Origin: Tubulanus polymorphus
Taxonomy: Eukaryota > Nemertea > Palaeonemertea > Tubulaniformes > Tubulanidae
Length of the DNA stretch: 64,000 bases
Direction of reading: 5' to 3'
Assembly (NCBI RefSeq): GCF_964204645.1
Contig: NC_134036.1
Location: forward strand, 4,142,001 to 4,206,000
Shown one piece after another: positions 1 through 51,900 of this stretch. Below the pieces are notes generated by a model. It had not been told where the DNA came from. It saw only the letters and a list, made by a program, of their open reading frames with translations, and made no database searches. Within the stretch, counting starts at the first letter, position 1; each line of letters opens with the position of its first letter. The position numbers and the translations under genes are program-made.

Positions 1-2355
1 ATATCAATAAGTGGATTGTGTGACTTCATACAGGATTGTGTCGATGGTTCTGATGAGAAATATTGCTTTCATCCCCCGTGTTTGTCCGAACAATTTCGCT
101 GTGACAGTGGCCAATGTATAAGTAGGTCGGACAGATGTAATGGATTTACTGATTGTAAGGACGACTCCGATGAAATGGGATGCACCACTCAAATGTGTCA
201 AGGATTCCTGTGTAACAGTGGAGACTGCATCAGTTCTGAGTTGTATCAGGATGGTGTCGTGGATTGTAGTGGAAGCCTCGAAGAAGATGAATTAGTAACA
301 TCTTCTAATGTTACAGTGAATCCTTCTGTTCATTGCAATAATGAAAACTACTGCACGACTAACTTTACAAATCTTTGTTCAAAATCCGATGAACAAAGAT
401 GTTCTTTCAATTCTCCTCATTGTTATGCAAGACTTTACAGATGTATTCTAGATAAAATGACAAATGGTTTCCCAGTTTGTAGAAATCTTGGGCACGTTTT
501 GAGATGTGAAGAATTTGAATGTCCAGCTGGTACTGTAAAATGTCCAGCATCGTACTGTATACCGATCAGACAAGTGTGCGATGGTCAATCAGATTGTCCT
601 AATTCAGAAGATGAGCAAAACTGCGAGACATTTTCATGTCCGGGAATGTTTAAATGTGGTCAGGAAAATCGATGTATCCCACAATCTGAAGTGTGTGATG
701 GAATCATTAATTGTAAACATACAACTGATGACGAGGCTTTCTGTAACGTCACGTGTCCTAAGGGCTGTAAATGTCAAGGTTATTTGATCGATTGTGAAAA
801 TGCTCGTTTATCAAGTATTACTGGTCTTTTTTCAGCATCAAGTCGAGTTTTAATTCTGTCAAATAACGGAATTGTTCTGACCCAGTCAACGTTTACTGGT
901 TTCGTGTATCTTCGAATGCTCAACATCTCCTTCAATGAATTGTCGTACATTTTACCAAACTCGTTCACAAACCTGCATAATCTACATACATTAGAACTGA
1001 CATACAACAACATAACATCATTATCTACGAATACATTCACCGGTTTGTATAGTTTGAAACAGTTATTGATTACTGAAAATCCAATACGTCATTTAGAGGA
1101 TGATACCTTCCAAGATTTGAAGGCACTCGAAATTCTCGATCTTCAAGGCCTTTCGTTGTTGGTACTTGGTAGAAATGTATTCAGAGGTTTATCTGCATTA
1201 CAGTCGTTGAATATCAGCAGTAACAGAATCCATCATATTTCACGATATGCTTTTTCAGGATTGAATGAAGTTAGAATTCTCGATGTCACCAATAACTCTG
1301 AATTCATTTCAACACAGACAGGCGTTTTCGTCAATCTGACATCATTAGTCTCCTTAGCGTCTGATGCTTACAAATTCTGTTGCATGGCTCCGAACGTTGA
1401 ACAGTGCCTTCCCGAAGCTGATCAATTTTCCTCGTGTTCTGATCTGATGGGTAACACAGTTCTCAGAGCTATCATCTGGGTCATCGCTGCGTTCAGTTTT
1501 TTAGCGAACGGTGGCGTCATTTTATTTCGGCTTCGGTCAATTCGACTCTCGCCTTCCGAAAAGCGTAACACATCGTCTGACATCCTTATAATCAATATCG
1601 CAGCTTGTGATTTTTTGATGTCGATTTATTTGTTTTTGATCGCGGGAGCAGATTACGTCTATAAAGGAGATTATTTCCTAAATTCTGAAACTTGGACGGA
1701 CAGTTTATTGTGTACTATTGCTGGATTTACGGTGACTATTTCTTGTGAGGGCTCATTAATGTTTCTGTTTATTCTAACGCGTCATAGATTCTCAAATGTC
1801 ATTAATCCATTTTCTGGAAGCCCGATCACATCTCCGAGATATGTATCAATGATTTGTTGCATATGTTGGTTATCAATTAGTACTATTTCTATAATACCAC
1901 TGTCACAGTCATCTTACTTCGGGAACAACTTCTATGGCAGTACCGGAGTTTGTTTACCTATGAATTTAATTTCTATTGATGTCAACGCCTGGCAATATTC
2001 ATTCGCTATTTTCGCCTTGTTTAACTCCGTCATACTTGCTACAATAATGGCGACTTATGCCCAAATGTACAGACTCGTATCTGGAAGCAGGTCTGGTTCG
2101 GGTAGAATCGACCCTACTGAACTAATTTTAGCGCGCAGGAGTTTGGTGATAAATCTGTGTAATCTCTTTTGCTGGCTGCCGTTAATTATCGTCCAGTTTT
2201 GCGCCGTATTCGGGGTACAAATACCGAATCAGGTGGCGGCTTGGCTGGCTGTTCTTTTCTTGCCGATCAACTCGTCCCTCAATCCCCTTCTTTACACCAT
2301 ACTGACTATCGATATGAAATCAATACGGGCAAAAACTAAACGCTCACGGCATTAG
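1..2355 (+). CDS. Receptor copy A, 3' part: LDLa-LRR-7TM receptor
   Basis: The left edge cuts the last exon of a receptor gene; frame 1 is open from base 1 to the TAG at 2353-2355. The visible protein starts inside the second LDLa module. It continues with LDLa modules (CDGQSDC, SEDEQNC), an LRR N-cap (CPKGCKC), about seven leucine-rich repeats and an LGR-type hinge (KFCCMAP and SCSDLM). A seven-helix domain follows, with NPLLYT as the NPxxY motif of helix 7. It is almost the same as the matching part of copy B (7944-10298), with scattered substitutions mainly in the 7TM part, such as SLLCTIAG against SSLCTIAG. By homology with B it should be preceded by CUB and C-type lectin exons outside the window. 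Expected at the cell surface as a G-protein-coupled receptor; ligand unknown. Confidence 0.88.
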   Translation: MSISGLCDFIQDCVDGSDEKYCFHPPCLSEQFRCDSGQCISRSDRCNGFTDCKDDSDEMGCTTQMCQGFLCNSGDCISSELYQDGVVDCSGSLEEDELVTSSNVTVNPSVHCNNENYCTTNFTNLCSKSDEQRCSFNSPHCYARLYRCILDKMTNGFPVCRNLGHVLRCEEFECPAGTVKCPASYCIPIRQVCDGQSDCPNSEDEQNCETFSCPGMFKCGQENRCIPQSEVCDGIINCKHTTDDEAFCNVTCPKGCKCQGYLIDCENARLSSITGLFSASSRVLILSNNGIVLTQSTFTGFVYLRMLNISFNELSYILPNSFTNLHNLHTLELTYNNITSLSTNTFTGLYSLKQLLITENPIRHLEDDTFQDLKALEILDLQGLSLLVLGRNVFRGLSALQSLNISSNRIHHISRYAFSGLNEVRILDVTNNSEFISTQTGVFVNLTSLVSLASDAYKFCCMAPNVEQCLPEADQFSSCSDLMGNTVLRAIIWVIAAFSFLANGGVILFRLRSIRLSPSEKRNTSSDILIINIAACDFLMSIYLFLIAGADYVYKGDYFLNSETWTDSLLCTIAGFTVTISCEGSLMFLFILTRHRFSNVINPFSGSPITSPRYVSMICCICWLSISTISIIPLSQSSYFGNNFYGSTGVCLPMNLISIDVNAWQYSFAIFALFNSVILATIMATYAQMYRLVSGSRSGSGRIDPTELILARRSLVINLCNLFCWLPLIIVQFCAVFGVQIPNQVAAWLAVLFLPINSSLNPLLYTILTIDMKSIRAKTKRSRH

Positions 2356-3470: not shown

Positions 3471-3802
3471 ACAACAGTGCGGGGCTTAAAGGACCTAGTC
3501 AAATACTCATCAATGCAGTGCTCAATAATGGCCTAGTTGAATACGCATCAGTGCAGGGATCAAGCTACCCAGTCCAATACTCATCAGTGTGTGCGGGGTT
3601 CAACTGACCTAGTTGAATACGCATCAGTGCGGGGTTCGACTGACCTAGTTGAATACTCATAAGTGCTAAGGTCAATTGTCCTAGTTGAATACTCATTAAT
3701 GTGGGTTCAACCGACTTGATTAGATACTCATCAATACAAGGATCAATTGACCTAGTTGAATACTCATCAGTGCGGGGATGTAACTGACCTAGTTGATGTA
3801 GC
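3471..3802. repeat. 36-bp minisatellite, short degenerate array upstream of B
   Basis: About nine degenerate units of 36 bp with the core CTAGTTGAATACTCATCAGT and a variable GGGGTCAAYTGAC segment. The array ends 532 bp before the B start codon. The same minisatellite is more than twice as long upstream of C and D and is not seen upstream of E or F. Units are directly adjacent, without spacers. Confidence 0.85.
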
Positions 3803-4334: not shown

Positions 4335-7300
4335 ATGTTGTTCGGTATGGAGCAGCGACTGAGAGCGCTGTTTATATCGTCGCTGATCGTCTGTCAAGTT
4401 CGCATCGCGCGCGCTGATCGCGCAGACTCTATCGAGGAATCGTCTGTGACGGTAAGTTCGTCTTGTAACAACACGTGGTACCCGCTAGATTCTACGTCCG
4501 GTTACATCGTTTCACCGAATTACCCTTCGTTGACGCTCGGTGTTGAATGTCGTTGGTTCATAAACAGCTCTTTACCGAGAACCTTTCACGTCCAAGTTTA
4601 CTACGATATCGAGCCGTCAATATTCTGTAGTGATAAATATCTTCTCATTTACCGGTCTGACCACAGATTGTGCGGTGATCGAAAACATGAAATCCGCCGT
4701 AAAGATTCGATCTCGTTGATGTTTAAGAGTAACGTCGATAGTGCCCGTGGTAGTCGGGTTTATATAACATATCGTTATGAACAAAATCAGTTGGCAATTA
4801 GTCACGACTGCCCCAAAAATGTCGGATTGAACGCATTGCAATCATTGATTGGATATAGATTATCTATACGCTACTTCATTACGTGTAAATTGTTTTTGGA
4901 CTGGACCGGGATGCCGGATGGTTTCGCAATGAATTTGACTTTCATGAAGTTGAGTATGACATTGTATCCAGGCGCTGATTCAGCGACGGCTGTTAGAATC
5001 CACGACACATGGAACAGCAGCAGTGAGCCTATAGGTCTTATACGAGAACAAACCGGACATCCACCTTCATCATTTTATACTAAAACAAACAAAGCCGTCA
5101 TATCTCTCCTTCATCGTCGACGGCAATTTCAGTCGCAGCTTTTAATCCAGGTTTATAGAATATCAGATTGGAACGTCTCTAATCCGTTGATTCAGATATC
5201 TTATAACGAGTCTGGAGTGATCGTTCCCGATGACAACAGTTTACACGTAATAACTCGATCAAAACACTTACACTGCTGGTCTATCACAGTGCAGGTGTTA
5301 CAGTACGTCGTCTTCAACTGGACACGTGATCTCATCACATCCGGTGACGTCATCGGTGTATATAAACAAGAAGGGTTACGCGTTGTAGGAACTGATGTTT
5401 TACTCGGTTACAACTACCTGGAATCACTGAGTGTCAAATCGGAGGGCTTTCTTGTAATACTGTGCGTTTTAAGGGGAAAGGAACTTTCGAATTCTCGTAT
5501 CGAAGTAACCTATAATGTTAAATCGCTTTCAATAGAAGATGTACGTGTTATCAGATTACAGGTGAGTATAAGAATCGGGCGATCGTTAAAATTGATGAAT
5601 CATATCACGTACTAGATTACCAGATTTGCAGAATATGTTGTTTTTAGATAAACAGCCAGGGGAAATCCTTGAACTCATTTCTAATGTTCCCATCATCAAA
5701 GAGGACAACATTTACGTATCGCATTAATACATTACTATCTAAATGGAAATTCGATATCCATGAAGAGAATATGGAACTAACAGTTTTATCAGAGAACTGC
5801 GAGCGAGCTGGATTTTACATATACGACGGTGTTAATTTCACGGCTAGACGATACGGTCCGTATTGTCCTCGTTTATACGCCCCGTACGACCGTAATGTCG
5901 TCAGTCTGATTACATCAGGTGGATCGATTACTGTAGTAGGCTACGCTTATAACTGGGGCGGTCAGTTAACAGTCGATAAGGATTCACACCTCAGATTTCG
6001 TCCGACCGACTGTGACGGGTATGTTTTAAAGGAAGGAGAACGTCGGATCAACATGACGTCACACTGTCTCGTGATTACACCCGAAAACCGACGCCTCCCT
6101 TTGAGAAACATCTATATATTATCAGAACACGAATATCAAATCGACCGATGTTTCGAGGATTCATTATTATACGGTGTATGTAGCAGGTATCTGAGATTGA
6201 GTAGTCAGTATCTCAATAACGGTTTCGTTTTGAACACCGCGAAAATTCGGGTTATGAATCCATTCTGGAATTATCCATTGATAGTTGAACTACGACGTAA
6301 ATGTCAAAGATTGAAGAAAGCCGAGCCGGAAGTTTTATTGCCTGTCATATTGAAAGATGAATGCGGGATATTACAATCACCGAATTATCCAGGATCGTCT
6401 GACAATCGATTTCAACCGTTATATTTCAATTTCCCAAACGTGGTTCAACGTTACCAATTCCCATACTACAGATTTATAATCAAATATATTGAAATGATAC
6501 GATGCGAGAAGGCAGAAACATTAGATAAAGACCCGATTGTAATACAACAATACATTACTGATACAAGTAGTGGTCAAACACATCGACACGAAAATAGAAT
6601 ATGTGACAATAACGCGATACTGGGACTTGTGTTTTATAGTTTCAGACATGACAGTATGTACTTCGAGGTGAAAAATTACATACCGACATTTCAAATACAA
6701 TACACATTAGAACAGTCGTTACCGGTAAAACAGTTTGAAAATGTCTGTAAATCAGGATTTCTAGATTCGGGAATTTCGTGCGTAAAATACATCAGAGATG
6801 AACGTCTGAATTGGGAGAATGCTGAATTGTACTGTAGACAGAAGTACGCGGGACATCTACTCAGTCTCAACTCAGAACAGGAAAGGATTTCTATCAAACG
6901 ATTATTCGCAACAGAACTTCTTCTAAATGCCTATTCACAGAAAGCGCTGATAATGATGATTGGATTAAAAATGCAGGTAAAATTCGTTAATATAGCTTTT
7001 AAAATTGACAATATTCTAAGGAATGTGATGATTCTCTATCTTCGATTCTCAATTCTATTTTCAGCCTAGATCTGGTCATTACACGTGGACTGACGGGAAA
7101 CCATTGAGCTACACAGAGTGGTATAAACCTACAAATAACGACACGATACCAGAAGAAATTCAAGGATTGATATCTCCTCTCAGAAAACAACCGATAAATA
7201 ACGTCAATATGCCGTGTACAGCGATGATACTGAATAATCCACGAGGTTCAGCGAACTGGGTTCGATTCCCCTGCGAAATCGAAGAGGTTCATACGAGTTT

Positions 7301-10298
7301 CATTTGCGAATCGGAAAGAATGAATATAGATAGAACTCTTACAAATTCAACAAATAACGACACATACGAGAAAATACGAGCAAATAAATTTCGAAATAAC
7401 TCGAGCTGTACAATTGGTTGGGTAAGCATAGACAGACAATGCTATCAAATACTGACTGACTGGAACAAACATCGAGGTTTAGATATAAAAGCTGCGAAAG
7501 AGATGTGTGATAGCATCCGTGGTAAAATAGGCAGAATCAGCAAAAATACGGAAAGAGATATCTTTAAATTGATAAGAGAGTTTCATTACCAACATCAATA
7601 TAGCTCTATACTAACGATGACTTTTAATGACAGACTTCAGGTTATACACCCAATAATCACTAGAGATGAAATTACGTATATTCAATCAGTTAAATGGATG
7701 ATGAAACAGTTTGATAACGCGACAGATACAGCGCATTCTGTTTTGTGTTCATACAATGTAACTGATGTAGAGTTATCTTCTATAAGCGGTTGTAAATCGT
7801 GGCAGTTTGAATGTAACGATCGAAGATGTATCAGCGACCATCGCGTATGTGATACTAGAAACGACTGTCAACACGGTGAAGATGAACTCAATTGTACGGA
7901 TATCAGTTTACACAGTCATTTTCAATGCAATGATGGTCAGGTGATATCAATAAGTGGATTGTGTGACTTCATACAGGATTGTGTCGATGGTTCTGATGAG
8001 AAATATTGCTTTCATCCCCCGTGTTTGTCCGAACAATTTCGCTGTGACAGTGGCCAATGTATAAGTAGGTCGGACAGATGTAATGGATTTACTGATTGTA
8101 AGGACGACTCCGATGAAATGGGATGCACCACTCAAATGTGTCAAGGATTCCTGTGTAACAGTGGAGACTGCATCAGTTCTGAGTTGTATCAGGATGGTGT
8201 CGTGGATTGTAGTGGAAGCCTCGAAGAAGATGAATTAGTAACATCTTCAAATGTTACAGTGAATCCTACTGTTCAGTGCAATAATGAAAACTACTGCACG
8301 ACTAACTTTACAAATCTTTGTTCGAAATCCGATGAACAAAGATGTTCTTTCAATTCTCCTTATTGTTATGCAAGACTTTACAGATGTATTCTAGATAAAA
8401 TGACAAATGGTTTCCCAGTTTGTAGAAATCTTGAGCACGTTTTGAGATGTGAAGAATTTGAATGTCCAGCTGGTACTGTAAAATGTCCAGCATCGTACTG
8501 TATACCGATCAGACAAGTGTGCGATGGTCAATCAGATTGTCCTAATTCAGAAGATGAGCAAAACTGCGAGACATTTTCATGTCCGGGAATGTTTAAATGT
8601 GGTCAGGAAAATCGATGTATCCCACAATCTGAAGTGTGTGATGGAATCATTAATTGTAAACATACAACTGATGACGAGGCTTTCTGTAATGTCACGTGTC
8701 CTAAGGGCTGTAAATGTCAAGGTTATTTGATCGATTGTGAAAATGCTCGTTTATCAAGTATTACTGGTCTTTTTTCAGCATCAAGTCGAGTTTTAATTCT
8801 GTCAAATAACGGAATTGTTCTGACCCAGTCAACGTTTACTGGTTTCGTGTATCTTCGAATGCTCAACATCTCCTTCAATGAATTGTCGTACATTTTACCA
8901 AACTCGTTCACAAACCTGCATAATCTACATACATTAGACCTGACATACAACAACATAACATCATTATCTACGAATACATTCACCGGTTTGTATAGTTTGA
9001 AACAGTTATTGATTACTGAAAATCCAATACGTCATTTAGAGGATGATACCTTCCAAGATTTGAAGGCACTCGAAATTCTCGATCTTCAAGGCCTTTCGTT
9101 GTTGGTACTTGGTAGAAATGTATTCAGGGGTTTATCTGCATTACAGTCGTTGAATATCAGCAGTAACAGAATCCATCATATTTCACGATATGCTTTTTCA
9201 GGATTGAATGAAGTTAGAATTCTCGATGTCACCAATAACTCTGAATTCATTTCAACACAGACAGGCGTTTTCGTCAATCTGACATCATTAGTCTCCTTAG
9301 CGTCTGATGCTTACAAATTCTGTTGCATGGCTCCGAACGTTGAACAGTGCCTTCCCGAAGCTGATCAATTTTCCTCGTGTTCTGATCTGATGGGTAACAC
9401 AGTTCTCAGAGCTATCATCTGGGTCATCGCTGCGTTCAGTTTTTTAGCGAACGGTGGCGTCATTTTATTTCGGCTTCGGTCAATTCGACTCTCGCCTTCC
9501 GAAAAGCGTAACACATCGTCTGACATCCTTATAATCAATATCGCAGCTTGTGATTTTTTGATGTCGATTTATTTGTTTTTGATCGCGGGAGCAGATTACG
9601 TCTATAAAGGAGAATATTTCCTAAATTCTGAAACTTGGACGGACAGTTCATTGTGTACTATCGCTGGATTTACGGTGACTATTTCTTGTGAGGGCTCATT
9701 AACGTTTCTGTTTATTCTAACGCGTCATAGATTCTCAAATGTCATTAATCCATTTTCTGGAAGCCCGATAACATCTCCGAGATATGTATCAATGATTTGT
9801 TGCATATGTTGGTTATCAATTAGTACTATTTCTATAATACCACTGTCACAGTCATCTTTCTTCGGGAACAACTTCTATGGCAGTACCGGAGTTTGTTTAC
9901 CGATGAATTTAATTTCTATTGATGTCAACGCCTGGCAATATTCATTTGCCATTTTCACCGTCTTAAACTATGTCATACTTGCTACAATAATGGCGACTTA
10001 TGCGCAAATGTACAGACACGTATCTGGAAGTAGGTCTGGTTCGGGTAGAATCGACCCTACAGAACTCATCTTGGCACGCAGGAGTTTGGTCATAAATCTT
10101 TGTAATTCATTTTGCTGGCTGCCGTTAATTATCGTTCAGTTTTGCGCGGTATTACGGATAGAAATACCGAATCAGGTGGCGGCTTGGCTGGCGGTTCTTT
10201 TTTTACCGGTCAACTCGTCCCTCAATCCCCTTCTTTACACCATACTGACTATCGATATGAAATCAATACGGGCAAAAACTAAACGCTCACGGCATTAG
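4335..10298 (+). CDS. Receptor copy B: CUB / C-type lectin / LDLa / LRR / 7TM receptor
   Basis: Three exons, 4335-5561, 5648-6976 and 7065-10298, give 1929 residues. Donors are CAG/GTGAGT and CAG/GTAAAA; acceptors are TTTTTAG and TTTTCAG; both introns (86 and 88 bp) are phase 0. ATG 4335 (or 4347) precedes a signal peptide (residues 1 to about 30, LFISSLIVC). Domains: CUB at 44-150 (SPNYPS), two or three degenerate CUB-like domains, canonical CUB at 648-763 (CGILQSPNYPG), C-type lectin-like domain 776-935 (GHLLSLNSE, WTDGKPLSYTEW) and a diverged second one 967-1082. Six LDLa modules follow (1095-1396), then an LRR N-cap and repeats (1397-1600), a Cys-rich hinge and 7TM (about 1632-1915). DRY reads HRF at 1740-1742; NPxxY is present. 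Many N-x-S/T sites fit a large glycosylated ectodomain. The LRR-7TM half follows LGR/GRL101 receptors; the CUB-lectin N-terminus is unusual for that family. Ligand and signalling are unknown. Confidence 0.85.
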
Positions 10299-12727
10299 AC
10301 AAATTCAAATGTAAAAAAGACTTGGTCCTTAGAAAAGTTTCCGTCATTTTTCAGTTTTGTACGTGATCTCATTATTTCATTTCTTAATATCAAAAATAGA
10401 AACTTGTTAACTGTTTATGAGATGATCGATAGAAATGGATGTTGGTTTGCTTGCGAAACGTTGTGGTTTGGTCGTTGTCTCGGGTGACGTACTAACTGTG
10501 TGAAAATATGGAAGATCTGTTTTTGAAATTGAGCCGATTAAATATTTAATATCGCATGGTGTTTAAGTTTATTTTCGATTATGCACGTCTTTTAAGGTGA
10601 ATCAGCTCGCGTGAAGTGTGGATGATCAGATTTTGAAATCAAGCTGATGAAATATCTAACGTCTGATGTTGCAGTGTATCTGACATTTGCCGAAAGTTCT
10701 CCGGGCTACAGACAACAAATTGACGCCTGTATTCTATACGTGTTTCCATCCGTTCTTATTTCCACTCAAAAATATTGAATTCATTTCTTTATTTTTTTAC
10801 GTTTAGAATTATATATACACATTTATTCGCGTTCATCGTTGAAATTAAAGAAATTAGACCATCGTCGTGTTGAGTCTGAATATAGATAAAAAATAAGAGT
10901 TATCGTTGTTGTGATATCGTCTTCTTTCCCCGATGGAAATATCGGCATTTTAAAACTTAACCGAGGTTCATTTCAGACTAGTCGCCGTCTATGATATCTA
11001 TCAAGTACTATATCAAAAAGCCCACAGTATTGACGAAAAAAAAAACACTAACAAATATGTTTCGTCGAAATTTCGGTGGATTTTTTAATTCATCTTAAGT
11101 TAATTCATTCAAAATGACACCTTAAATAAATCTCCGAAGGTCGAGCTAATCCATAGTTCAGGCCTTTCGGATGCCGTTCGTGGATATTGTGGCGGTTCTC
11201 ATTTTTCTGATAATATAGAATTAATTTCAATTCAAAACCAACAAATCCCTATGGAAAATATGCAGAATATGCAAAATATGCAGAATATCAGCACGTAAGG
11301 AAGTGACAATACGAGGCCAGTCCTAAATGTGAGACATTCAAAAATTTACTAAACTCTATTAAAAACAAACATGACGTAGAAAAACGCAAAAATATGATGA
11401 TAAATCGATACGAAAATCGATGTTTAAAAAAGTGTAAATGAAAAATTAACCAGTTCTTGAGTAATTTTCCATAAAAGTAGAAAAAATCTTTTCAATTCAT
11501 CAACCAAAAATGACCTAGTTAAATACTCATCAGTGCGAGGGTCAACTTACCCAGTCCGAAACGCAACAGTGACTAGGTCAAGTGACCTAGTTTGATACTC
11601 AACAGTGCGGGGCTCAAAGGACCTAGTCAAATACTCATCAATGCAGTGCTCAATAATGGCCTAGTTGAATACGCATCAGTGCGGGGATCAAGTGGCCCAG
11701 TCCAATACTCATCAGTGTGTCCGGGGTTCAACTGACCTAGTTGAATACTCATCAGTGTTGGGGTCAATTGACCCAGTCCAATACTCTTCAGTGTCTCCGG
11801 GGTTCAACAGACCTAGTTGAATACACACCCGTGTGTGCGGGGGACAACTGGCCTAGTTGAATACTCATCAGTGCGGGGGTCAATTGACCTAGTTGAATAC
11901 TCATCAGTGCAGGAGTCAATTGACCTAGTTGAATACTCATTAGTGTGGGGATCAATTGACCTAGTTGAATACTCATCAGTGCAGGAGTCAATTGACCTAG
12001 TTGAAAACTCATCAGTGCAGGAGTCAATTGACCTAGTTGAATACCCATCAGTGCAGGAGTCAATTGACCTAGTTGAATACTCATCAGTGCAGGAGTCAAT
12101 TGACCTAGTTGAATACTCATCAGTTCAGGAGTCAATTGACCTAGTTGAATACTCATCAGTGCAGGAGTCAATTGACCTAGTTGAATACTCATCAGTGCGG
12201 GGATGTAACTGACCTAGTTGATGTAGCTTATCGCAGATGTGAGACTGGTATGATTCTAGTCAGAATGATGAGTTCCATAATCGCACAGTACATCAGCGAC
12301 AATATTATAAAATCGGAATATATGAAAGATTCGCTCCCAGAAAAAACCCTGAACGAAAGATGCGAAATTATTAATCAGAACATTTTTGAAATATAATTGG
12401 ACATAGATATTTACGACATGTGGAAACATGAAAGTGGAAATTGCTGCGCGGATAGATGGTAATAACTGTGAAGCTCGTCCGTAGCTGGTAGTTTCTGTTC
12501 GATCGAACATAAATGACATGAACCGATTTCGACAAAATATCATGCAATGGTTGAAAAATATAGTTATATTCCGAAGTTGCCGAGCCCTGCAACTGATTGG
12601 TAAAACATCTAAATGCTGCATCGATTTTGTAGAGAATTTGAAGATAGAAACTGACACGAACAACTGATCAGTGATTGAAATAAAAAGAACTTGCATCGAT
12701 CATGAATTTCATCGTTGTATCGTGTTG
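10299..12727. other. Intergenic B-C: 3' flank, minisatellite, upstream region
   Basis: No gene seen. The first kilobase matches the 3' flank of A, including the diverged repeat at about 10460-10690 and the 9-bp array near 11259. An AATAAA at about 11114 could be a poly(A) signal but is 0.8 kb from the stop codon. About 190 bp of A-rich sequence (11325-11515) has no counterpart between A and B. It is followed by the long minisatellite and then about 500 bp of upstream sequence shared with B and D. Confidence 0.6.
11511..12222. repeat. 36-bp minisatellite, long array upstream of C
   Basis: About twenty contiguous units of 36 bp. The later units are nearly identical: TCAATTGACCTAGTTGAATA followed by CTCATCAGTGCAGGAG. 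Earlier units are degenerate. Because 36 is a multiple of 3 and the unit lacks stops in some frames, both strands show open frames of about 130 codons. These are by-products of the repeat, not genes. The array ends about 500 bp before the start codon of C. Confidence 0.92.
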
Positions 12728-15700
12728 ATGTTGTTCGGTATGGAGCAGCGACTGAGAGCGCTGTTTATAGCGTCGCTGATCGTCTGTCGAGTTCGCATCG
12801 CGCGCGCTGATCGCGCAGACTCTATCGAGGAATCGTCTGTGACGGTAAGTTTGTCTTGTAACGACACGTGGTACCCGCTAGATTCTACGTCCGGTTACAT
12901 CGTTTCACCGAATTACCCTTCGTTATCGCGCAGTGGTGAATGTCGTTGGTTCATCAACAGTTCTCTAACGCGAACTTTTCACGTCCAAGTTTACTACGAT
13001 ATCGAGCCGTCAATATTCTGTGGTGATAACTATCTTCTCATTTACCGGTCTGACCACAGATTGTGCGGTGATGGAAAACATGAAATCCGCCGTAAAGATT
13101 CGATCTCGTTTATGTTTAGGAGTAACGTCGATAGTGCCCGGGGTAGTCGGGTTTATATAACATATCGTTATGAACGAAATCATTTGACGATTAGTCACGA
13201 TTGCCCCAAAAATGTCGGATTGAACGCATTGCAATCATTGATTGGATATAGATTATCTATACGCTACTTCATTAGGTGTAAATTGTTTTTGGACTGGACC
13301 GGGATGCCGGATGGTTTTGCAATGAATTTGACTTTTATGAAGTCAAGTATGACATTGTATCCAGGCGCTGATTCAGCGACGGCTGTTAAAATCCACGACG
13401 GATGGAACAGCAGCAGTGAGCCTATAGGTCTTATACGAGAACAAACCGGACATCCGCCATCATCATTTTATACTAAAACAAACAAAGCCGTCATATCTCT
13501 CCTTCATCGTCGACGGCAATTTCAGTCGCAGCTTTTAGTCCAGGTTTATAGAATATCAGATTGGAACGTATCTAATCCATTGATTCAGATCTCTAATAAC
13601 GAGTCGGGAGTGCTCATTCCCGATGACAACAGTTTACACGTAATAACTCGATCGAAACACTTACACTGCTGGTCTATCACAGTGCAGGTGTTACAGTACG
13701 TCGTCTTCAACTGGACACGTGATCTCATCACATCCGCTGACGACATCGGTGTATATAAACTAGAAGGGTTACGCGTTGTAGGAACTGATATTTTACTCGG
13801 TTACAACTATCTGCAATCACTGAGTATTAAATCTGACGGCTTCCTGGTCGTATTGTGCGTTTTGAGGGGACAAAAATCAACAAAATCTCGTATAGTTATT
13901 AACTTTAAAATGGAATCACTTTCAATAGAAGATGTACGCGTCGACAAATCTACGGTGAGTATACAATTGAATGATCTTTAAAATTGATGGTTCATATCAT
14001 TTATGAAAGTATCTGATTTGAAGAATATCTGTTGTAGATAAAACAGGGAATATCCTCCTTGTCACATTTCGTGAAGTTTCCGAATAATAAGAGGGCGACA
14101 TTAACGTATAGCATTAATATATTACTATTTAAATGGAAAGTTGATATTTATGAAGAGAATTTGGAACTAACAGATTTATCAGAGAACTGCGAGCGAGCTG
14201 GATTTTACATATTCGACGGTGGTAATTTCACGGCTAGACGATACGGTCCGTATTGTCCTCGTTTATACGCCCCGTACGACCGTAACGTCGTCAGTCTGAT
14301 TACATCAGGTGGATCGGTTACTGTAGTAGCATACGCTTATAACTGGGACGGTCAGTTAACAGTCGGTAAGGAGTCACGCCTCAGATTTCGTCCTACCGAC
14401 TGTGACGGGTATGTTTTAAAGGAGGGAGAACGTCAGATCAACATGACGTCACACTGTCTCGTGATTACACCCGAAAACCGACGCCTCCCTTTGAGAAACA
14501 TCTATATATTATCAGAACACGAATATCAAATCGACCGATGTTTCGAGGATTCATTATTATACGGTGTATGTAGCAGGTATCTGAGATTGAGTAGTCAGTA
14601 TCTCAATAACGGTTTCGTTTTGAACACCGCGAAAATTCGGGTTATGAATCCATTCTGGAATTATCCATTGATAGTTGAACTACGACGTAAATGTCAAAGA
14701 TTGAAGAAAGCCGAGCCGGAAGTTTTATTGCCTGTCATATTGAAAGATGAATGCGGGATATTACAATCACCGAATTATCCAGGATCGTCTGACAATCGAT
14801 TTCAACCGTTATATTTCAATTTCCCAAACGTGGTTCAACGTTACCAATTCCCATACTACAGATTTATAATCAAATATATTGAAATGATACGATGCGAGAA
14901 GGCAGAAACATTAGATAAAGACCCGATTGTAATACAACAATACATTACTGATACAAGTAGTGGTCAAACACATCGACACGAAAATAGAATATGTGACAAT
15001 AACGCGATACTGGGACTTGTGTTTTATAGTTTCAGACATGACAGTATGTACTTCGAGGTGAAAAATTACATACCGACATTTCAAATACAATACACATTAG
15101 AACAGTCGTTACCGGTAAAACAGTTTGAAAATGTCTGTAAATCAGGATTTCTAGATTCGGGAATTTCGTGCGTAAAATACATCAGAGATGAACGTCTGAA
15201 TTGGGAGAATGCTGAATTGTACTGTAGACAGAAGTACGCGGGACATCTACTCAGTCTCAACTCAGAACAGGAAAGGATTTCTATCAAACGATTATTCGCA
15301 ACAGAACTTCTTCTAAATGCCTATTCACAGAAAGCGCTGATAATGATGATTGGATTAAAAATGCAGGTAAAATTCGTTAATATAGCTTTTAAAATTGACA
15401 ATATTCTAAGGAATGTGATGATTCTCTATCTTCGATTCTCAATTCTATTTTCAGCCTAGATCTGGTCATTACACGTGGACTGACGGGAAACCATTGAGCT
15501 ACACAGAGTGGTATAAACCTACAAATAACGACACGATACCAGAAGAAATTCAAGGATTGATATCTCCTCTCAGAAAACAACCGATAAATAACGTCAATAT
15601 GCCGTGTACAGCGATGATACTGAATAATCCACGAGGTTCAGCCAACTGGGTTCGATTCCCCTGCGAAATCGAAGAGGTTCATACGAGTTTCATTTGCGAA

Positions 15701-21117: not shown

Positions 21118-24100
21118 ATGTTGTTCGGTATGGAGCAGCGACTGAGAGCGCTGTTTATAGCGTCGCTGATCGTCTGTCGAGTTCGCATCGCGCGCGCTGA
21201 TCGCGCAGACTCTATCGAGGAATCGTCTGTGACGGTAAGTTTGTCTTGTAACGACACGTGGTACCCGCTAGATTCTACGTCCGGTTACATCGTTTCACCG
21301 AATTACCCTTCGTTATCGCGCAGTGGTGAATGTCGTTGGTTCATCAACAGTTCTCTAACGCGAACTTTTCACGTCCAAGTTTACTACGATATCGAGCCGT
21401 CAATATTCTGTGGTGATAACTATCTTCTCATTTACCGGTCTGACCACAGATTGTGCGGTGATGGAAAACATGAAATCCGCCGTAAAGATTCGATCTCGTT
21501 TATGTTTAGGAGTAACGTCGATAGTGCCCGGGGTAGTCGGGTTTATATAACATATCGTTATGAACGAAATCATTTGACGATTAGTCACGATTGCCCCAAA
21601 AATGTCGGATTGAACGCATTGCAATCATTGATTGGATATAGATTATCTATACGCTACTTCATTAGGTGTAAATTGTTTTTGGACTGGACCGGGATGCCGG
21701 ATGGTTTTGCAATGAATTTGACTTTTATGAAGTCAAGTATGACATTGTATCCAGGCGCTGATTCAGCGACGGCTGTTAAAATCCACGACGGATGGAACAG
21801 CAGCAGTGAGCCTATAGGTCTTATACGAGAACAAACCGGACATCCGCCATCATCATTTTATACTAAAACAAACAAAGCCGTCATATCTCTCCTTCATCGT
21901 CGACGGCAATTTCAGTCGCAGCTTTTAGTCCAGGTTTATAGAATATCAGATTGGAACGTATCTAATCCATTGATTCAGATCTCTAATAACGAGTCGGGAG
22001 TGCTCATTCCCGATGACAACAGTTTACACGTAATAACTCGATCGAAACACTTACACTGCTGGTCTATCACAGTGCAGGTGTTACAGTACGTCGTCTTCAA
22101 CTGGACACGTGATCTCATCACATCCGCTGACGACATCGGTGTATATAAACTAGAAGGGTTACGCGTTGTAGGAACTGATATTTTACTCGGTTACAACTAT
22201 CTGCAATCACTGAGTATTAAATCTGACGGCTTCCTGGTCGTATTGTGCGTTTTGAGGGGACAAAAATCAACAAAATCTCGTATAGTTATTAACTTTAAAA
22301 TGGAATCACTTTCAATAGAAGATGTACGCGTCGACAAATCTACGGTGAGTATACAATTGAATGATCTTTAAAATTGATGGTTCATATCATTTATGAAAGT
22401 ATCTGATTTGAAGAATATCTGTTGTAGATAAAACAGGGAATATCCTCCTTGTCACATTTCGTGAAGTTTCCGAATAATAAGAGGGCGACATTAACGTATA
22501 GCATTAATATATTACTATTTAAATGGAAAGTTGATATTTATGAAGAGAATTTGGAACTAACAGATTTATCAGAGAACTGCGAGCGAGCTGGATTTTACAT
22601 ATTCGACGGTGGTAATTTCACGGCTAGACGATACGGTCCGTATTGTCCTCGTTTATACGCCCCGTACGACCGTAACGTCGTCAGTCTGATTACATCAGGT
22701 GGATCGGTTACTGTAGTAGCATACGCTTATAACTGGGACGGTCAGTTAACAGTCGGTAAGGAGTCACGCCTCAGATTTCGTCCTACCGACTGTGACGGGT
22801 ATGTTTTAAAGGAGGGAGAACGTCAGATCAACATGACGTCACACTGTCTCGTGATTACACCCGAAAACCGACGCCTTCCTTTGAGAAATATTTATATATT
22901 ATCCGAACACGAATATCAAATTGACCGATGCTTTCGGGATTCTTTATTGTACGGTGTATGTAGCAGGTATCTGAGATTGAGTAGTCAGATTCTCAATAAC
23001 GGTTTCGTTTTGAACACCGCGAAAATTCGGGTTATGAATCCATTCTGGAATTATCCATTGATAGTTGAACTACGACGCAAATGTCAAAGATTGAAGAAAT
23101 CCGAGCAGGACATTCTAATGCCTGTCATGTTGAAAGATGAATGCGGGATATTACAATCACCGAATTATCCTGGATCGTCTGAGTATCGATTTCAACCGTT
23201 ATATTTCAATTTCCCAAACGTGATTCAACGTTACCAATTCCAATACTACAGATTTATAATCAAATATATAGAAATGATACGATGCGAGAAGGCAGTGACA
23301 AGAGACAAGGACCCGATTGTAATACAACAACTAGTCAGAGATAGCGGTCAAATACATCGACACGAAAATAAAATATGTGACAATAACGCGATAACGGGAC
23401 TTGTGTTTTATAGTTTAAGAGATGAGATCCTGTGGTTTGAGGTGAAAAGTCACATACCGACATTTCAAATACAATACACATTAGAACAGTCGTTACCGGT
23501 AAAACAGTTTGAAAATGTCTGTAAATCAGGATTTCTAGATTCGGGAATTTCCTGCGTTAAATACATCAGAGATGAACGTCTGAATTGGGAGAATGCTGAA
23601 TTGTACTGTAGACAGAAGTACGCGGGACATCTACTCAGTATCAACTCAGAACGGGAGATGATGGCTATCAAGACGTTATTCGCTACAAAACTTCTTTTGA
23701 AGGCATATTCACAGAAAGCGCTCATATTGATAATTGGATTAAAAATGCAGGTGAAATTCGTTAATATAGTTTCCAAATATTTCCTTTTTAAAATGGACAA
23801 TCTTTTAAGGAATGTGATAATTCTCTATCTTCGATTCTCAATTCTATTTTCAGCCTAGATCTGGTCATTACATGTGGACTGACGGGAAACCATTGAGCTA
23901 CACAGAGTGGTATAAACCTACAAATAACGACACGATACCAGAAGTTATTCGAGGATTGATATCTCCTCTCAGAAAACAACCGATAAATGACGTCAATATG
24001 CCGTGTACAGCGATGATACTGAATAATCCACGAGGATCGGCGAACTGGGTTCGATTCCCCTGCGAGATCGAAGAGGTTCATACCAGTTTCATTTGCGAAT

Positions 24101-27096
24101 CGGAAAGATTGGACACAGATCTAAATACAACACATTCGACAAACAACGAAACATTTGAGCAGATACAAGATAAATCATTTGGAGACTCTGGTTTCAAAAA
24201 CTCGAGCTGTAAGATTGGTTGGGTAAGCATAGATAAACAATGCTATCAAATATTGACGGACTGGAACAAACATCGACGTTTAGATAAAGAAACTGTGACA
24301 GAGGCGTGTGATAGCATCCGTGGTAAAATAGGCAGATTAAGCAAACATACAGAAAAAGATATCTTTAATTTGATAAGAGCATTTCAATATCGACATCAAT
24401 ATAGCTCTATACTAACGATGACTTCTAATGACAGACTTCAGGTTATACACCCAATAATCACTAGAGATGAAATGACTTATATTCAATCAGTTAAATGGAT
24501 GATGAAACAGTTTGATAACGCGACAGATACAGCGCATTCTGTTTTGTGTTCATACAATGTAACTGATGAATTGGCTTCTATAAGCGGTTGTAAATCGTGG
24601 CAGTTTGAATGTAACGATCGAAAATGTATCGGCGACCATCGCGTATGTGATACTAGAAACGACTGTCAACACGGTGAAGATGAACTCAATTGTACGGATA
24701 TAGATTTACACAGTCATTTTCAATGCAATGATGGTCAGATTATATCAATAAGTGGATTCTGTGACTTCATGCAGGATTGTGTGGATGGTTCTGATGAGAA
24801 ATCTTGTTTTCATCCCCCCTGTTTGTCCGAACAATTTCGCTGTGACAGTGGCCAATGTATAAGTAGGTCGGACAGATGTAATGGATTTACTGATTGTAAG
24901 GACGACTCCGATGAAATGGGATGCACCACTCAAATGTGTCAAGGATTCCTGTGTAACAGTGGAAACTGTATCAGTTCTGAGTTGTATCAGGATGGTGTCG
25001 TGGATTGTAGTGGAAGCCTCGAAGAAGATGAATTAGTAACATCTTCTAATGTTACAGTGAATCCTACTGTTCAGTGCAATAATGAAAACTACTGCACAAC
25101 TAACTTTACAAATCTTTGTTCGAAATCCGATGAACAAAGATGTTCTTTCAATTCTCCTCATTGTTATGCAAGACGTCACAGATGTATTCTAGATAAAATG
25201 ACAAATGGTTTCCCAATTTGTAGAAATCTTGAGCACGTTTTGAGATGTGAAGAATTTGAATGTCCAGCTGGTACTGTAAAATGTCCAGCATCGTACTGTA
25301 TACCGATCAGACAGGTGTGCGATGGTCAATCAGATTGTTCTAATTCAGAAGATGAGCAAAACTGCGAGACATTTTCATGTCCGGGAATGTTTAAATGTGG
25401 TCAGGAAAATCGATGTATCTCACAATCTGAAGTGTGTGATGGGGTCGTTAATTGTAAACATACAACTGATGACGAGGCTTTCTGTAACGTCACGTGTCCT
25501 AAGGGCTGTAAATGTCAAGGTCATTTGATCGATTGTGATAACGCTCGTTTATCAAATATTACTAGTCTTTTTTCAGCATCAAGTCGAGTTTTAGTTCTGT
25601 CAAATAATGGAATTGTTCTGACCCAGTCGACGTTTACTGCTTTCGTGTATCTTCGAATGCTCAACATCTCCTTCAATGAATTGTCTTATATTTTACCAAA
25701 CTCGTTCACAAACTTGCATAATCTATATACATTAGACCTGACATACAACAACATAACATCATTATCTACAAATACATTCACCGGTTTGTATAGTTTGAAA
25801 CAGTTATTGATTACTGAAAATCCACTACGTCATTTAGAGGACGACACCTTCCAAGATTTGAAGGCACTCGAAATTCTCGATCTTCACGGACTTTCGTTGT
25901 TGGTGCTTGGTAGATTTGTATTTCGAGGTTTATCTGCATTACAGTCGTTGAATATCAGCAGTAACAGAATCAATCATATTTCACTATATTCTTTTTCAGG
26001 ATTGAATGAAGTAAGGACTCTCGATATAACTAACAACTACAAAGTCATTTCAACAGAGACAGGTGTTTTCGTCAATCTGACATCATTAGTCTCCTTAGCG
26101 TCTGATGCTTACAAATTTTGTTGCATGGCTCCGAACGTTGACCAGTGCCTTCCCGAAGCTGATCAATTTTCCTCCTGTTCTGATCTGATGGGTAACACAG
26201 TCCTCAGAGCTATCATTTGGGTCATCGCTGCGTTCGGTTTCCTCGCGAATAGTATTGTCATTTTATTTCGTTATCGATCTATTCGACTTTCGTCCTCCGA
26301 AAAGCGTAACACATCTTCTGATATCCTAATTATCAATATCGCAGCTTGTGATTTTCTGATGTCGATTTATTTATTTTTGATAGCGGGAGCAGATTACGTT
26401 TATAAAGGAGTTTATTTCCTAAATTCTGAAACTTGGACCGACAGTTCATTTTGTAGTTTCGGTGGAGTTATAGTGACCATTTCCTGTGAAGGCTCATTAA
26501 CGTTTCTGTTTATTCTAACGCGTCACAGATTTTCAAATATCATTAATCCATTTTCGGGAAGCCCGATTGCATCTCCGAGATATGTATCAATAATTTGTTG
26601 CATATGTTGGCTATCAATAAGTACAATTTCTTTAATACCACTGTCACAGTCATCTTACTTCGGGAACAAATTCTACGGCACAACCGGAGTTTGTTTACCT
26701 ATGAATTTAATAGCAATCGATGTCAACGCCTGGCAATATTCATTCGCTATTTTCACCGTCTTAAACTCTGTCATACTTGCTACCATAATGGCGACTTATG
26801 CGCAAATGTACAGCCACGTATCTGGAAGTAGGTCTGGTTCGGGTAGAATCGACCCTACTGAACTCATATTGGCACGCAGGAGTTTGGTGATAAATCTGTG
26901 TAATTTATTTTGTTGGCTGCCGTTAATTATCGTTCAGTTTTGCGCCGTATTACGGGTAGAAATACCGAATCAGGTGGCGGCTTGGCTGGCTGTTCTTTTC
27001 TTACCGATCAACTCGTCCCTCAATCCCCTTCTTTACACAATACTGACAATCGATATGAAATCAATACGGGCAAAAACTAAACGCTTACGGTATTAG
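21118..27096 (+). CDS. Receptor copy D: CUB / C-type lectin / LDLa / LRR / 7TM receptor
   Basis: Exons 21118-22344, 22428-23750 and 23854-27096 give 1930 residues; introns are phase 0 (83 and 103 bp). ATG 21118 (or 21130) opens the signal peptide. The 5' half equals that of C. From about 22877 it is a clearly separate paralogue with many replacements in the last CUB, between the lectin domains and in the LRRs, and with a slightly longer second intron. All domains of B are present: two lectin-like domains, six LDLa modules, LRR block, hinge KFCCMAP and 7TM with HRF for DRY and NPLLYT. The last residues are KTKRLRY. The 3' flank differs completely from A-C, which marks the end of this tandem block. 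Predicted surface receptor; ligand unknown. Confidence 0.87.
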
Positions 27097-45998: not shown

Positions 45999-46013
45999 CT
46001 ACGCTCACAATTG

Positions 46014-48950: not shown

Positions 48951-51900
48951 ATGTTGTTTGGTATGGAGCAGCGACTGAGAGCGCTGTTTATATCGTCGCT
49001 GATCGTCTGTCAAGATCGCATCGCACGCGCTGATCGCGCAGACTCTATCGAGGAATCGTCTGTGACGGTAAGTTCGTCTTGTAACAACACGTGGTACCCC
49101 CTAGATTCTACGTCCGGTTACATCGTTTCACCGAATTACCCTTCGTTAACGCGCGGTGTTGAATGTCGTTGGTTCGTCAACAGCTCTTTACCGGGGACTT
49201 TTCAGGCCCGAGTTTACCACGACATCGAGCCATCAATATTTTGCAGTGATAACTACCTTGTCGTCTATCAGTCTGATAACAGATTCTGTGGCAATGGTAA
49301 ACACGAAATTCGCCGTAACAATTCGATCCCATTGATGTTTAGAAGTAACGTCGATAGTGCACGAGGAAGTCGGGTTTATATCATATATCGTTATACACGA
49401 AGCCAATTGATTTTAAGTCACGACTGTAACTCCAATTTTTTGGGATTGGGACGATTGCAAACATCGAATGGATACCGATTTGTTTTAGATTTTTTCAATC
49501 ACCAGTGTCAACTATATTTAGAATGGCTCAGACTCCAGGATGGCTTCGCTTTGAATCTGACATTCAGCAACGTTAGCTTCGAATTATATCATATTGTTAA
49601 AACAGCTTCGATTAAGATTCACGACGGTTGGAACACCAGTAGCGAACCTATCGCTCATATACCTGAACAAAAAGGACTAACACCGTCTACGCTTTATACT
49701 AAAACAAACAAGGCCATCATCGGTCTGCCATCATTCGCATTAAAATTTCACTCAAAATTACATGTGCAGATTTACAAAATATCAGATTGGAACGTATCTA
49801 ATCCATTGATTCAGATCTATAATAACGAGTGGGGAGTGCTCATTCCCGATGACAACAGTTTACACATAATAACTCGATCAAAACACTTACACTGCTGGTC
49901 TATCACAGTGCAGGTGTTACAGTACGTCGTCTTCAACTGGCCACGTGATCTCGTCTCGTCCGGTGACGTCATCGGTGTATATAAACTAGAAGGGTTACGC
50001 GTTGTAGGAACTGATATTTTACTCGGTTACAACTACCTGCAATCACTGAGTGTCAAATCTGAAAGCTTTCTCGTCATACTGTGCGTTTTAAGGCCACAAG
50101 AATCAACAAAAAATCATATTGAAATAATCTACAAAATGGAATCGCTTTCGATGACCGATGTTAAGGTTTTTCGGCTACGAGTAAGTATACAATATTTTCA
50201 TATATTATAAATATATTTCAATAATATATATTTCATATATATTTATGTATTTATAAAACAATTATTTCTCCGATATTATTCAAAACACAGATTATGAATT
50301 CTAAAACTTGGCAACTTTTTCTACAGAATTTGGAGTTTATAAAACCTTTTCGAATGTTCCCAACGAAAAACAAACCGATAGTGACGTATCGCGCAAATAT
50401 ATTGAAGCTCACATCGAAATCTAATGTCCATGAATATGGTTTGCGCATGTTGGTTTTATCAGAGAACTGCGAGCGAGCTGGATTTTACATATACGACGGT
50501 GGTAATTTCACGGCTAGACGATACGGTCCGTATTGTCCTCGTTCAACTAGGTACGACCGTAACGTCGTCAGTCTGATTACATCAGGCGGATCAGTAACTG
50601 TACTAGCGTACGCCTACAAATGGGACGGACAGCTGACCGAAGACAGCGAATTGGAACGCCCCTTTCTCAAATTTCAACCGACCGACTGTGTCGGGTACGT
50701 CCTCCAGGAGGGAGAACGGCAGGTCAACATGACGTCACATTGTCTCGTGATTACACCTGAAAATCGACGCCTTCCTTTGAGACATATTTACATATTATCA
50801 AAACACGAATATCAAATTGACCGTTGTTTTACTGGAAAATGGAGGAGATCTTGCAAAAGATTTACAACTTTTAAAAGTCGATTTCTCAATAACAGTCTCG
50901 TATTAAACACGGTTAGGCTTGACAACGAATTCAAGTTCTGGCAATCTCCATTCATAGTTAAAGTACGTCGTAAATGCCAAAGTTTGAAGCGGGCCGATTC
51001 AAGTGGTGCCGGAACGTTTTTACCGGATAAAGATGATTGCGGAATCGTGCAGTCACCGAACTACCCGGGATATGCAGGCTTATTTGCTCAAGCGCTTCGC
51101 TATACATTCGATACTAGATACGTAGGAAGCGCAATTAAATACAGATACTACAGATTCGTTATCAAATATATCGACATAACGCCGTGTTTAAGGATATCTT
51201 TAATGGACAGAGATCCGATCGAGTTTGTTCAACAAATGGACGATTATATCAACGGAAGGCAGATGCACGTCACGCGGAAAATCTGTAAAATTAACCATCC
51301 GTTACTTGGCGGCGTATTTCACAGTTTAATGAATGGTGGCTTCCATTTCGACATAAAAGGCAGAGCCCCGACATTTCAGATACAATACACATTAGAAGCA
51401 TCGTCACCGATCGAAGCGAATCGCTGTCAATCGGGATTCTTTGATTCTGGAATTTCATGCATACGATATATGAGAGGTGAGCGTCTGAATTGGGAGAATG
51501 CTGAATTGTATTGTAGACAGAAGTACGCGGGACATCTACTCAGTATCAACTCAGAACAGGAAATGGCGGCTATCAAGACGTTATTCGCTACGAAACTTCT
51601 TCGTCATGCTTATTCACAGAAAACCCTCATAATGCTGATTGGATTAAAGCTGCAGGTGACAACCCTAAGTATTGAAGATTAGTAACAAAAAGTTTTGGAT
51701 TTACCATCTGGATAGAATGTTTCTACATAATTTCAGAGAACATGCATTAATGTTTTGTAATACTCTTTTGAATGAATCTCCGAAGACGAATTCAAACGGC
51801 AGTATAACTGCAGATCGTTCGACGTTCATCGTCAATACTGTGTCTTTTTTGCTCTTGAATGCAGCTTTTACTGAAATATGTTTTAATGTATAATGTGTAA

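What the first reader, a model, noticed from the sequence alone, without database searches (positions are those of the whole stretch)
4335..10298. Tandem family of chimeric CUB-lectin-LDLa-LRR 7TM receptors
Seen: six copies (A-F), four complete in the window, encode one polypeptide each with CUB domains, two C-type-lectin-like domains, six LDLa modules, LRRs and a 7TM domain; splice phases agree in all. Known: LGR-type receptors (RXFP, GRL101) combine LDLa, LRR and 7TM. Inference: an N-terminal CUB series plus lectin-like domains is not part of the classic LGR plan, and recent expansion points to a fast-evolving sensory or immune recognition role. This is my best candidate for an undescribed system in the window.
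Basis: partly seen in the sequence, partly recalled or inferred. Interest (0 to 1): 0.82.

Follow-up and report, generated by a model that had tools for sequence, protein, structure and literature searches.

The report
Giant chimeric receptor family in ribbon worm
A marine ribbon worm carries a very large family of giant cell-surface receptors that join ligand-binding modules (CUB, lectin-like, LDLa, leucine-rich repeats) to a hormone-receptor-type signalling core, and the copies keep swapping parts, as expected of proteins that recognise many different molecules.

Summary
Exons 4335-5561, 5648-6976 and 7065-10298 splice in phase 0 into a 1929-aa receptor: N-terminal CUB domain, CUB-like/beta-rich stretches, a C-type-lectin-like domain completed only by joining exon 2 to exon 3, a doubtful second one, six LDLa, LRRs, 7TM. 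Four window copies are complete. Not upheld: a supported 'CUB series' and a firm second lectin domain. The genome is Tubulanus polymorphus (Nemertea). The family far exceeds the window: 293 hinge-motif (exon 3) and 313 CUB-motif places genome-wide, controls 0; 31 of 37 fetched loci are open in all three exons. Copies are mosaics: exon-1 and exon-3 similarity between genes is uncorrelated (r=0.08); copy C carries D's 5' half and B's 3' half. Ectodomain blocks vary strongly while the 7TM is conserved (dN/dS 0.15-0.17). The exon-3 core is the known GRL101-type plan, described with a lectin domain in Biomphalaria (PMC12297450); the CUB N-terminus matched nothing outside in one search. Best reading: a lineage-expanded, recombining recognition GPCR repertoire, probably for non-self; function is inferred.

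The parts
1..2355 (+). Copy A: 3' part of exon 3 (cut by window start)
   Evidence: 97% identical to copy B protein 1146-1929; the whole exon lies at G000:C12:4141125-4144355
4335..5561 (+). Copy B exon 1: hydrophobic N-terminus (probable signal peptide), CUB1, further beta-rich region
4485..4733 (+). Copy B CUB1 domain (residues 51-133)
   Evidence: Pfam CUB: E 23.9 and F 22.2 bits over the cut-off 21.4; B 19.9; 16 of 16 members match at E<=1; cubilin 1.4e-13
4764..5174 (+). Copy B variable block V1 (residues 144-280)
   Evidence: dN and dS both raised in the array and non-array sets; in the 5 window-cluster sequences dN raised, dS about that of the 7TM
5562..5647 (+). Copy B intron 1 (86 nt, GT-AG, phase 0)
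5648..6976 (+). Copy B exon 2: CUB-like stretches and first half of CTLD1
6206..6586 (+). Copy B variable block V2 (residues 596-722)
6773..6976 (+). CTLD1, 5' half in exon 2
6977..7064 (+). Copy B intron 2 (88 nt, phase 0), splits CTLD1
7065..10298 (+). Copy B exon 3: second half of CTLD1, possible CTLD2, six LDLa, LRRs, 7TM, stop
7065..7319 (+). CTLD1, 3' half in exon 3
7398..7772 (+). Possible second C-type-lectin-like domain (residues about 964-1088)
   Evidence: weak:
7791..8744 (+). Six LDLa modules and spacer (residues about 1095-1412)
   Evidence: Pfam Ldl_recept_a, 6 stretches, E 2.8e-34
8844..9383 (+). LRR region (residues about 1446-1625)
   Evidence: Pfam LRR_8, 3 stretches
9414..10244 (+). 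Rhodopsin-class 7TM domain
   Evidence: Pfam 7tm_1 3.1e-20; RXFP1 is the best solved match, 151.5 bits
12728..18688 (+). Copy C: exons 12728-13954, 14038-15366, 15455-18688; mosaic of D (5') and B (3')
6046..14486 (+). Tandemly duplicated segment, repeated 8390 bp downstream with 2 mismatches; both edges lie in exon 2
21118..27096 (+). Copy D: exons 21118-22344, 22428-23750, 23854-27096
48951..55178 (+). Copy E: exons 48951-50180, 50327-51655, 51927-55178
58053..64000 (+). Copy F: exons 58053-59288, 59377-60744, 61016-64000 (exon 3 cut by window end)
   Evidence: the match runs on in the genome, G000:C12:4203016-4206261, with 1 TGA in it, possibly the end of the frame

Best explanation
This is one stretch of a very large (about 300 motif places), lineage-expanded family of LGR type-C receptors (GRL101-like layout) in Tubulanus polymorphus. 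Each gene encodes one spliced polypeptide whose CUB- and lectin-like N-terminus is a variable recognition head. The head sits on a conserved LDLa-LRR-7TM chassis that turns binding into G-protein signalling. Unequal crossing-over and gene conversion in tandem arrays reshuffle heads and chassis and keep a diverse germline repertoire. Shown: gene anatomy, copy-number scale, openness of most sampled copies, mosaicism, concentration of variation in ectodomain blocks, purifying selection on the 7TM. Inferred: that the exons form one mRNA, that the head binds ligands, that ligands are many and foreign (my pick: non-self recognition, about 0.35; external chemosensing about 0.25), and that LDLa/LRR relay activation as in RXFP1.
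For: One polypeptide: CTLD1 passes the Lectin_C cut-off only when exons 2 and 3 are joined; same exon layout at loci on six contigs. Scale: 293 hinge motifs, 313 CUB1 motifs, 264 motifs of a second exon-1 stretch, control 0 each; 134 distinct exon-3 loci scored by four searches (merged in 107); of 366 exon-1 candidates the best 102 were scored, 102 of 102 without an internal stop. Coupling: 42 of 55 zero-mismatch hinge places have a zero-mismatch CUB1 motif 4.7-5.5 kb upstream. Reassortment: 110 of 136 array pairs have a longest identical run above all 200 shuffles; pair identity in exon 1 v exon 3 r=0.08, exon 2 v exon 3 r=0.00; copy C = D 5' + B 3'. Selection: dN/dS 7TM 0.15-0.17, blocks of exons 1-2 0.24-0.65. 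Signalling motifs: R3.50 in 35 of 35, NPxxY 32 of 35, CWLP 31 of 35. RXFP1 is the nearest solved 7TM. A related lectin-bearing GRL101 cluster lies in a schistosome-resistance region of snails (PMC12297450, passages).
Against: No expression, ligand or signalling data. No region averages dN/dS>1: 11 of 200 sliding windows do, 9 of them in the ectodomain and 2 in the last part of the 7TM, several at very low dS. D3.49 of the DRY motif is replaced by H or Q in 35 of 35. CTLD1 lacks an EPN/QPD sugar motif in 35 of 35 (motif recalled), so a classic Ca-dependent lectin role is unlikely. In the snail region the strongest variants lie in a neighbouring RING-IAP gene, not in the GRL101 genes. 13 of 55 hinge places had no zero-mismatch CUB1 motif upstream. 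High copy number and mosaicism can also arise neutrally in tandem arrays.
Confidence: 0.6

Rival explanations
1. External chemosensory repertoire: the genes are the worm's odorant/taste receptors, tuned to prey, mates or habitat cues. (This 0.25 is part of the 0.6 of the best explanation.)
For: Repertoire size is typical of chemosensory GPCR families (recalled); a GRL101-like transcript is higher in starfish sensory tentacles than in tube feet (PMC6267866, passages); conserved 7TM with variable ectodomain fits too.
Against: Classic chemosensory 7TM families vary in the TM pocket (recalled); here the 7TM has the lowest dN/dS of the blocks counted, apart from the C tail, and variation lies in the large N-terminal head.
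Confidence: 0.25
2. Hormone receptors: relaxin/insulin-like peptide receptors of type C, expanded without change of function.
For: 7TM nearest to RXFP1 among solved structures and weakly beside it in an unresolved tree; LDLa+LRR+7TM is the type C plan (PMC11863921, passages).
Against: About 300 motif places, variable heads and mosaic exchange are not expected for receptors of a few conserved peptides.
Confidence: 0.08
3. Self/gamete or allorecognition receptors.
For: CUB and CTLD domains and polymorphic tandem mosaics are common in such systems (recalled); mosaic arrays shown.
Against: No evidence on expression or polymorphism; loci on at least ten contigs (C3, nine) rather than one linked locus.
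Confidence: 0.1
4. Mostly neutral expansion: array instability multiplies a receptor whose copies are largely redundant.
For: Near-identical copies such as B/C exon 3 and broken copies (4 of 37 fetched loci).
Against: Most sampled copies open (31 of 37; sample leans to intact copies), 7TM dN/dS 0.15-0.17 and bounded variable blocks.
Confidence: 0.1
5. Artefact: separate CUB-lectin and receptor genes lying side by side, or false duplication in the assembly.
For: No RNA available; B/C/D share an 8.39-kb block with 2 differences, which a merged haplotype could also give.
Against: CTLD1 is split by intron 2; same layout at many loci on several contigs; in the array, block identity between copies averages 75-95% and falls to 57%.
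Confidence: 0.05

Closest known systems
GRL101-like GPCRs of Biomphalaria sudanica SudRes2 (PMC12297450)
   Same: LRR + LDLa + C-type-lectin-like ectodomain on a 7TM; tandem cluster of paralogs; putative recognition role (passages read).
   Different: 12 genes in the cluster (2 of them incomplete) against ~300 motif places here; the paper's main text does not contain the word CUB (0 occurrences); the head/chassis exchange is my analysis, not something I saw in its passages.
GRL101 of Lymnaea (Tensen 1994, seen only as a citation) and Aplysia GRL101 (P0002)
   Same: Multiple LDLa, LRRs, 7TM; the Aplysia protein also carries a sub-threshold Lectin_C match (21.2 bits, cut-off 22.6).
   Different: No CUB match in the Aplysia protein; 29% identity over 77% of exon 3.
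RXFP1/RXFP2 relaxin receptors (LGR type C1)
   Same: LDLa-LRR-7TM order; best solved structural relative (7tmw, 151.5 bits v 74.4 for LH receptor).
   Different: One or two LDLa in the starfish C1 receptors of PMC11863921 (passages); no CTLD or CUB (recalled).
Unnamed proteins P0036 and P0037 (database, source ENA)
   Same: Collinear with exon 3 from the second half of CTLD1 to the 7TM, 33% identity over almost its whole length; their frames begin with what looks like an intron end (FQ, LQ; sequences) at the homologous place, which suggests the same phase-0 intron (inference).
   Different: Organism unknown; what lies 5' of that exon was not seen, so a CUB head cannot be excluded.
Sea urchin Sp185/333 (PMC5103432) and SRCR expansions (PMC10855680); only the listing and abstract starts seen
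   Same: Large invertebrate immune families; Sp185/333 clustered and repeat-rich.
   Different: Different proteins; not GPCRs (recalled).

Membership tests
LGR (leucine-rich repeat GPCR) | LRR ectodomain fused to rhodopsin-class 7TM | tested here: met
   LRR_8 1.1e-28 and 7tm_1 3.1e-20 in one frame of exon 3
LGR type C (relaxin/GRL101) | LDLa module(s) N-terminal to the LRRs | tested here: met
   Six LDLa stretches; definition from PMC11863921 passages
LGR type C2 (GRL101-type) | Multiple LDLa modules | tested here: met
   Six; PMC4079206 describes GRL101 as LGR with multiple LDLa (passages)
LGR type C2 (GRL101-type) | Groups with GRL101 rather than with RXFP in a tree | tested here: inconclusive
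   7TM tree of 19 sequences: Tubulanus copies monophyletic (100) but their place is unresolved, weakly beside RXFP1 rather than GRL101
Lectin-bearing GRL101 (SudRes2 type) | CTLD N-terminal to LDLa | tested here: met
   Lectin_C 35.8 bits for B, 7 of 7 paralogs matching
CUB-domain protein | Significant CUB match | tested here: met
   E and F over the cut-off, B itself just under; 16 of 16 at E<=1, best 4.4e-8
   No second CUB in Pfam; one CUB-like start, hhalign 59%; structure prediction failed
C-type lectin (sugar binding) | EPN/QPD motif in the Ca site (recalled) | tested here: not met
   0 of 35; YKPTNN, YQPTNN and similar
Rhodopsin-class GPCR, signalling-competent | DRY, CWxP, NPxxY (recalled) | tested here: inconclusive
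   R3.50 35 of 35 but D3.49 lost in 35 of 35; CWLP 31 of 35; NPxxY 32 of 35 (one of the 35, F, is cut by the window)
Immune receptor family | Response to pathogen or binding of non-self | not testable with these tools
   No expression or binding data

The most novel reading that the evidence does not exclude
A germline-diversified non-self recognition system built on GPCRs: about 300 genes in which CUB/lectin-like heads with hypervariable blocks are reshuffled over a conserved LDLa-LRR-7TM signalling chassis by unequal exchange. That would be a GPCR counterpart of FREP, Sp185/333 or NLR repertoires.
Probability: 0.33. Interest if true: 0.87.

Novelty: new variant of a known kind. Interest (0 to 1): 0.66.

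Why it matters
If true, a phylum with little immunology has a very large expansion of a hormone-receptor relative, with pattern-recognition-type domains in the same polypeptide as the signalling core. It links to an open question, whether lectin-bearing GRL101 receptors are immune sensors, raised by the snail schistosome-resistance region SudRes2, and makes it testable in a family with hundreds of natural variants. It also shows how annotation can break such genes: the database model found (LOC141911221, 689 aa) is pieced out of a locus whose exon-3 frame is open for 1106 codons.

Tried and rejected
Structure prediction of exons 1 and 2 from window copies alone gave mean pLDDT 39 and 32; no fold search was run on them. 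Region-wide positive selection was looked for and not found. hhalign between ectodomain segments for internal CUB repeats gave only the short SPNYP start (some high scores there are just overlapping segment ends). A 7TM tree to place the family in type C1 or C2 stayed unresolved. The 36-bp upstream minisatellite as a universal recombination signal was rejected: it is upstream of B, C and D and in only 3 of 37 fetched loci (L001, L012, L035), though those hold only about 0.9-1.9 kb of upstream DNA. The downstream-distance control is poor because of tandem spacing (20 of 55). The variable blocks were picked from the array and then checked on the other 20 sequences: V1, J and V2 stand clear there, V3 (dS 0.67) only just above the LRR region (0.63); in the five window-cluster sequences V1's dS (0.57) is hardly above that of the 7TM (0.55). 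First-look candidate counts (366 to 1354) are not gene counts and were not used as such. GT-AG in 34 of 34 fetched models is by construction, since the script allowed nothing else; L020 has a GC donor at the homologous place and was left unmodelled. My script called L035 broken because it picked up the tail of the neighbouring gene; all three exon frames are open, and the counts here use the corrected figure. L035 and L037 (120-residue longer exon 3) were left out of the evolutionary counts, which used 34 sequences.


Full report
1. What is there. The window (G000:C12:4142001-4206000) holds six copies of one gene family on the + strand. Copy B, the one given, has exons 4335-5561, 5648-6976 and 7065-10298, both introns phase 0, and encodes 1929 aa with one terminal stop. 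C, D and E are complete and open; A and F are cut by the window ends. Pfam finds six LDLa, LRR_8 and 7tm_1 in exon 3. CUB1 in exon 1 passes the Pfam cut-off in E (23.9 bits) and F (22.2), falls just short in B (19.9), and is matched at E<=1 by 16 of 16 aligned exon-1 sequences; a profile of them finds cubilin at 1.4e-13.

2. One protein or two? The sequence speaks against it: the C-type-lectin-like domain is cut by intron 2. Exon 2 of B alone gives 15.1 bits; joined to exon 3 it gives 35.8 bits, cut-off 22.6, with 7 of 7 paralogs matching. The three-exon layout recurs in loci on C12, C8, C11, C10, C5 and C4. Of 37 fetched loci, 31 are open in all three exons (30 by the script, L037 among them with an unusually long exon 3, plus L035, which the script misjudged), 4 are broken (L004, L023, L027, L032), L002 was cut by my own choice of stretch, and L020 has a GC donor and was left unmodelled. 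The 37 were chosen from the best DNA matches, so they lean towards intact copies. RNA is still needed.

3. What is overstated. Beyond CUB1 no CUB is significant; one CUB-like start lies in exon 2. The second lectin-like domain is weak. CTLD1 has no EPN/QPD motif in 35 of 35, so sugar binding by the classic site is unlikely (motif recalled).

4. Species and scale. The best database relative, LOC141911221 of Tubulanus polymorphus, lies on a contig of 16,481,795 bases; G000:C9 has exactly that length, and its residues 27-689 are covered without a gap by exact 12-residue words of C9:2808300-2811000. So the worm is T. polymorphus, a palaeonemertean; flow cytometry gives 313 and 358 Mb for two samples under that name, the Pacific one possibly another species (PMC8468679, passages), against 268 Mb assembled. 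Genome-wide, a hinge motif of exon 3 occurs 293 times, the CUB1 motif 313 times and a second exon-1 motif 264 times, up to 2 mismatches, control 0 in each; only the first 100 places of each are listed. Of 55 zero-mismatch hinge places on C3 to C9 (to 2.98 Mb), 42 have a zero-mismatch CUB1 motif 4.7-5.5 kb upstream on the same strand; 13 do not, so some copies may lack or have diverged in the CUB exon. Four exon-3 searches scored 134 distinct loci; in the P0001 search 55 of 60 rows of the 3' part of exon 3 had no internal stop. An exon-1 search scored the best 102 of 366 candidates, 102 without an internal stop. A motif place is not a gene: how many of the ~300 are whole and expressed is not known.

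5. How the copies evolve. C shares its upstream region, exon 1 and intron 1 with D at 100%, and intron 2, exon 3 and downstream region with B at 99.9-100%: window 6046-14486 is repeated 8390 bp further with 2 differences, both edges in exon 2. This is what unequal crossing-over between B and D would leave; a doubled haplotype in the assembly is the alternative. In the 17-gene array C12:4.82-4.95 Mb, 110 of 136 pairs hold an identical run longer than in any of 200 shuffles, and pair identity in exon 1 and exon 3 is uncorrelated (r=0.08; exon 2 v exon 3 0.00; exon 1 v exon 2 0.38). The shuffle test assumes even rates along the gene, which they are not, so the correlation is the better evidence.

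6. Where they vary. Blocks at B residues 144-280, 375-440, 596-722 and 996-1030 have raised dN and dS beside conserved stretches. Chosen on the 14 open array genes, they hold up on the 20 other sequences (dS 0.91, 1.18, 1.24, 0.67 against at most 0.63 elsewhere), the last one barely; in the five window-cluster sequences the first block's dS (0.57) is close to the 7TM's (0.55). dN/dS is 0.15-0.17 in the 7TM and 0.24-0.65 in the blocks of exons 1-2; no block exceeds 1. Raised dS as well as dN suggests old head lineages kept apart while exchange homogenises the framework (inference).

7. Kinship. The 7TM is nearest to RXFP1 among solved structures (151.5 bits; next LH receptor 74.4). P0036 and P0037, unnamed proteins, are collinear with exon 3 at 33%. 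GRL101 proteins of Aplysia and Mytilus match. So the exon-3 core is the GRL101-type plan, with a lectin-like domain as published for Biomphalaria (PMC12297450, passages). A 7TM tree does not settle C1 against C2. A search with residues 30-1115 found no relative at E<=1e-3 among 2744 candidates, not even this worm's own annotated proteins; that search has limited reach (shared words, whole-protein length limits, gene models that break such genes), so a CUB head elsewhere is not excluded. The listings of nine paper searches showed no CUB-bearing GRL101 receptor and no such family in nemerteans; only open-licence papers are searched, and one search used loose terms (3 of 6).

8. Mechanism. Most likely (0.6) a recognition repertoire: variable head binds, LDLa/LRR relay, 7TM signals. 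Within this I favour non-self recognition (about 0.35) over external chemosensing (about 0.25), because variation sits in CUB/lectin-like heads rather than in the 7TM, and because a lectin-bearing GRL101 cluster lies in a parasite-resistance region in snails, though there the strongest variants are in a neighbouring RING-IAP gene. These last steps are inference.

Noticed in passing
window 29936-37135, - strand: A 2399-codon open frame of Ser/Thr-rich repeats (units of 15, 30, 45, 90 bp and more), looks like a mucin-type gene between copies D and E.
   Followed up: no
window 3495-3772, 11511-12221, 19901-20611: 36-bp minisatellite about 0.5-1.2 kb upstream of copies B, C and D; among 37 fetched loci seen in L001, L012 and L035 only.
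   Followed up: partly
window 6046-14486 and 14436-22876: 8390-bp tandem duplication with 2 differences in 8441 bp; could be very recent or an assembly duplicate.
   Followed up: partly
G000:C9:2808300-2811000 (L039): Database model LOC141911221 (689 aa) is pieced out of this locus, whose exon-3 frame is open for 1106 codons; other members may be mis-annotated in the same way (not checked).
   Followed up: partly
L020:4031: Probable GC-AG intron 2 (donor GCAAGA) in one copy on C4.
   Followed up: no
window 43120-43867, - strand: Two overlapping open frames of 182 and 178 codons, just before a stretch with only 32% GC at 44001-48000; not identified.
   Followed up: no
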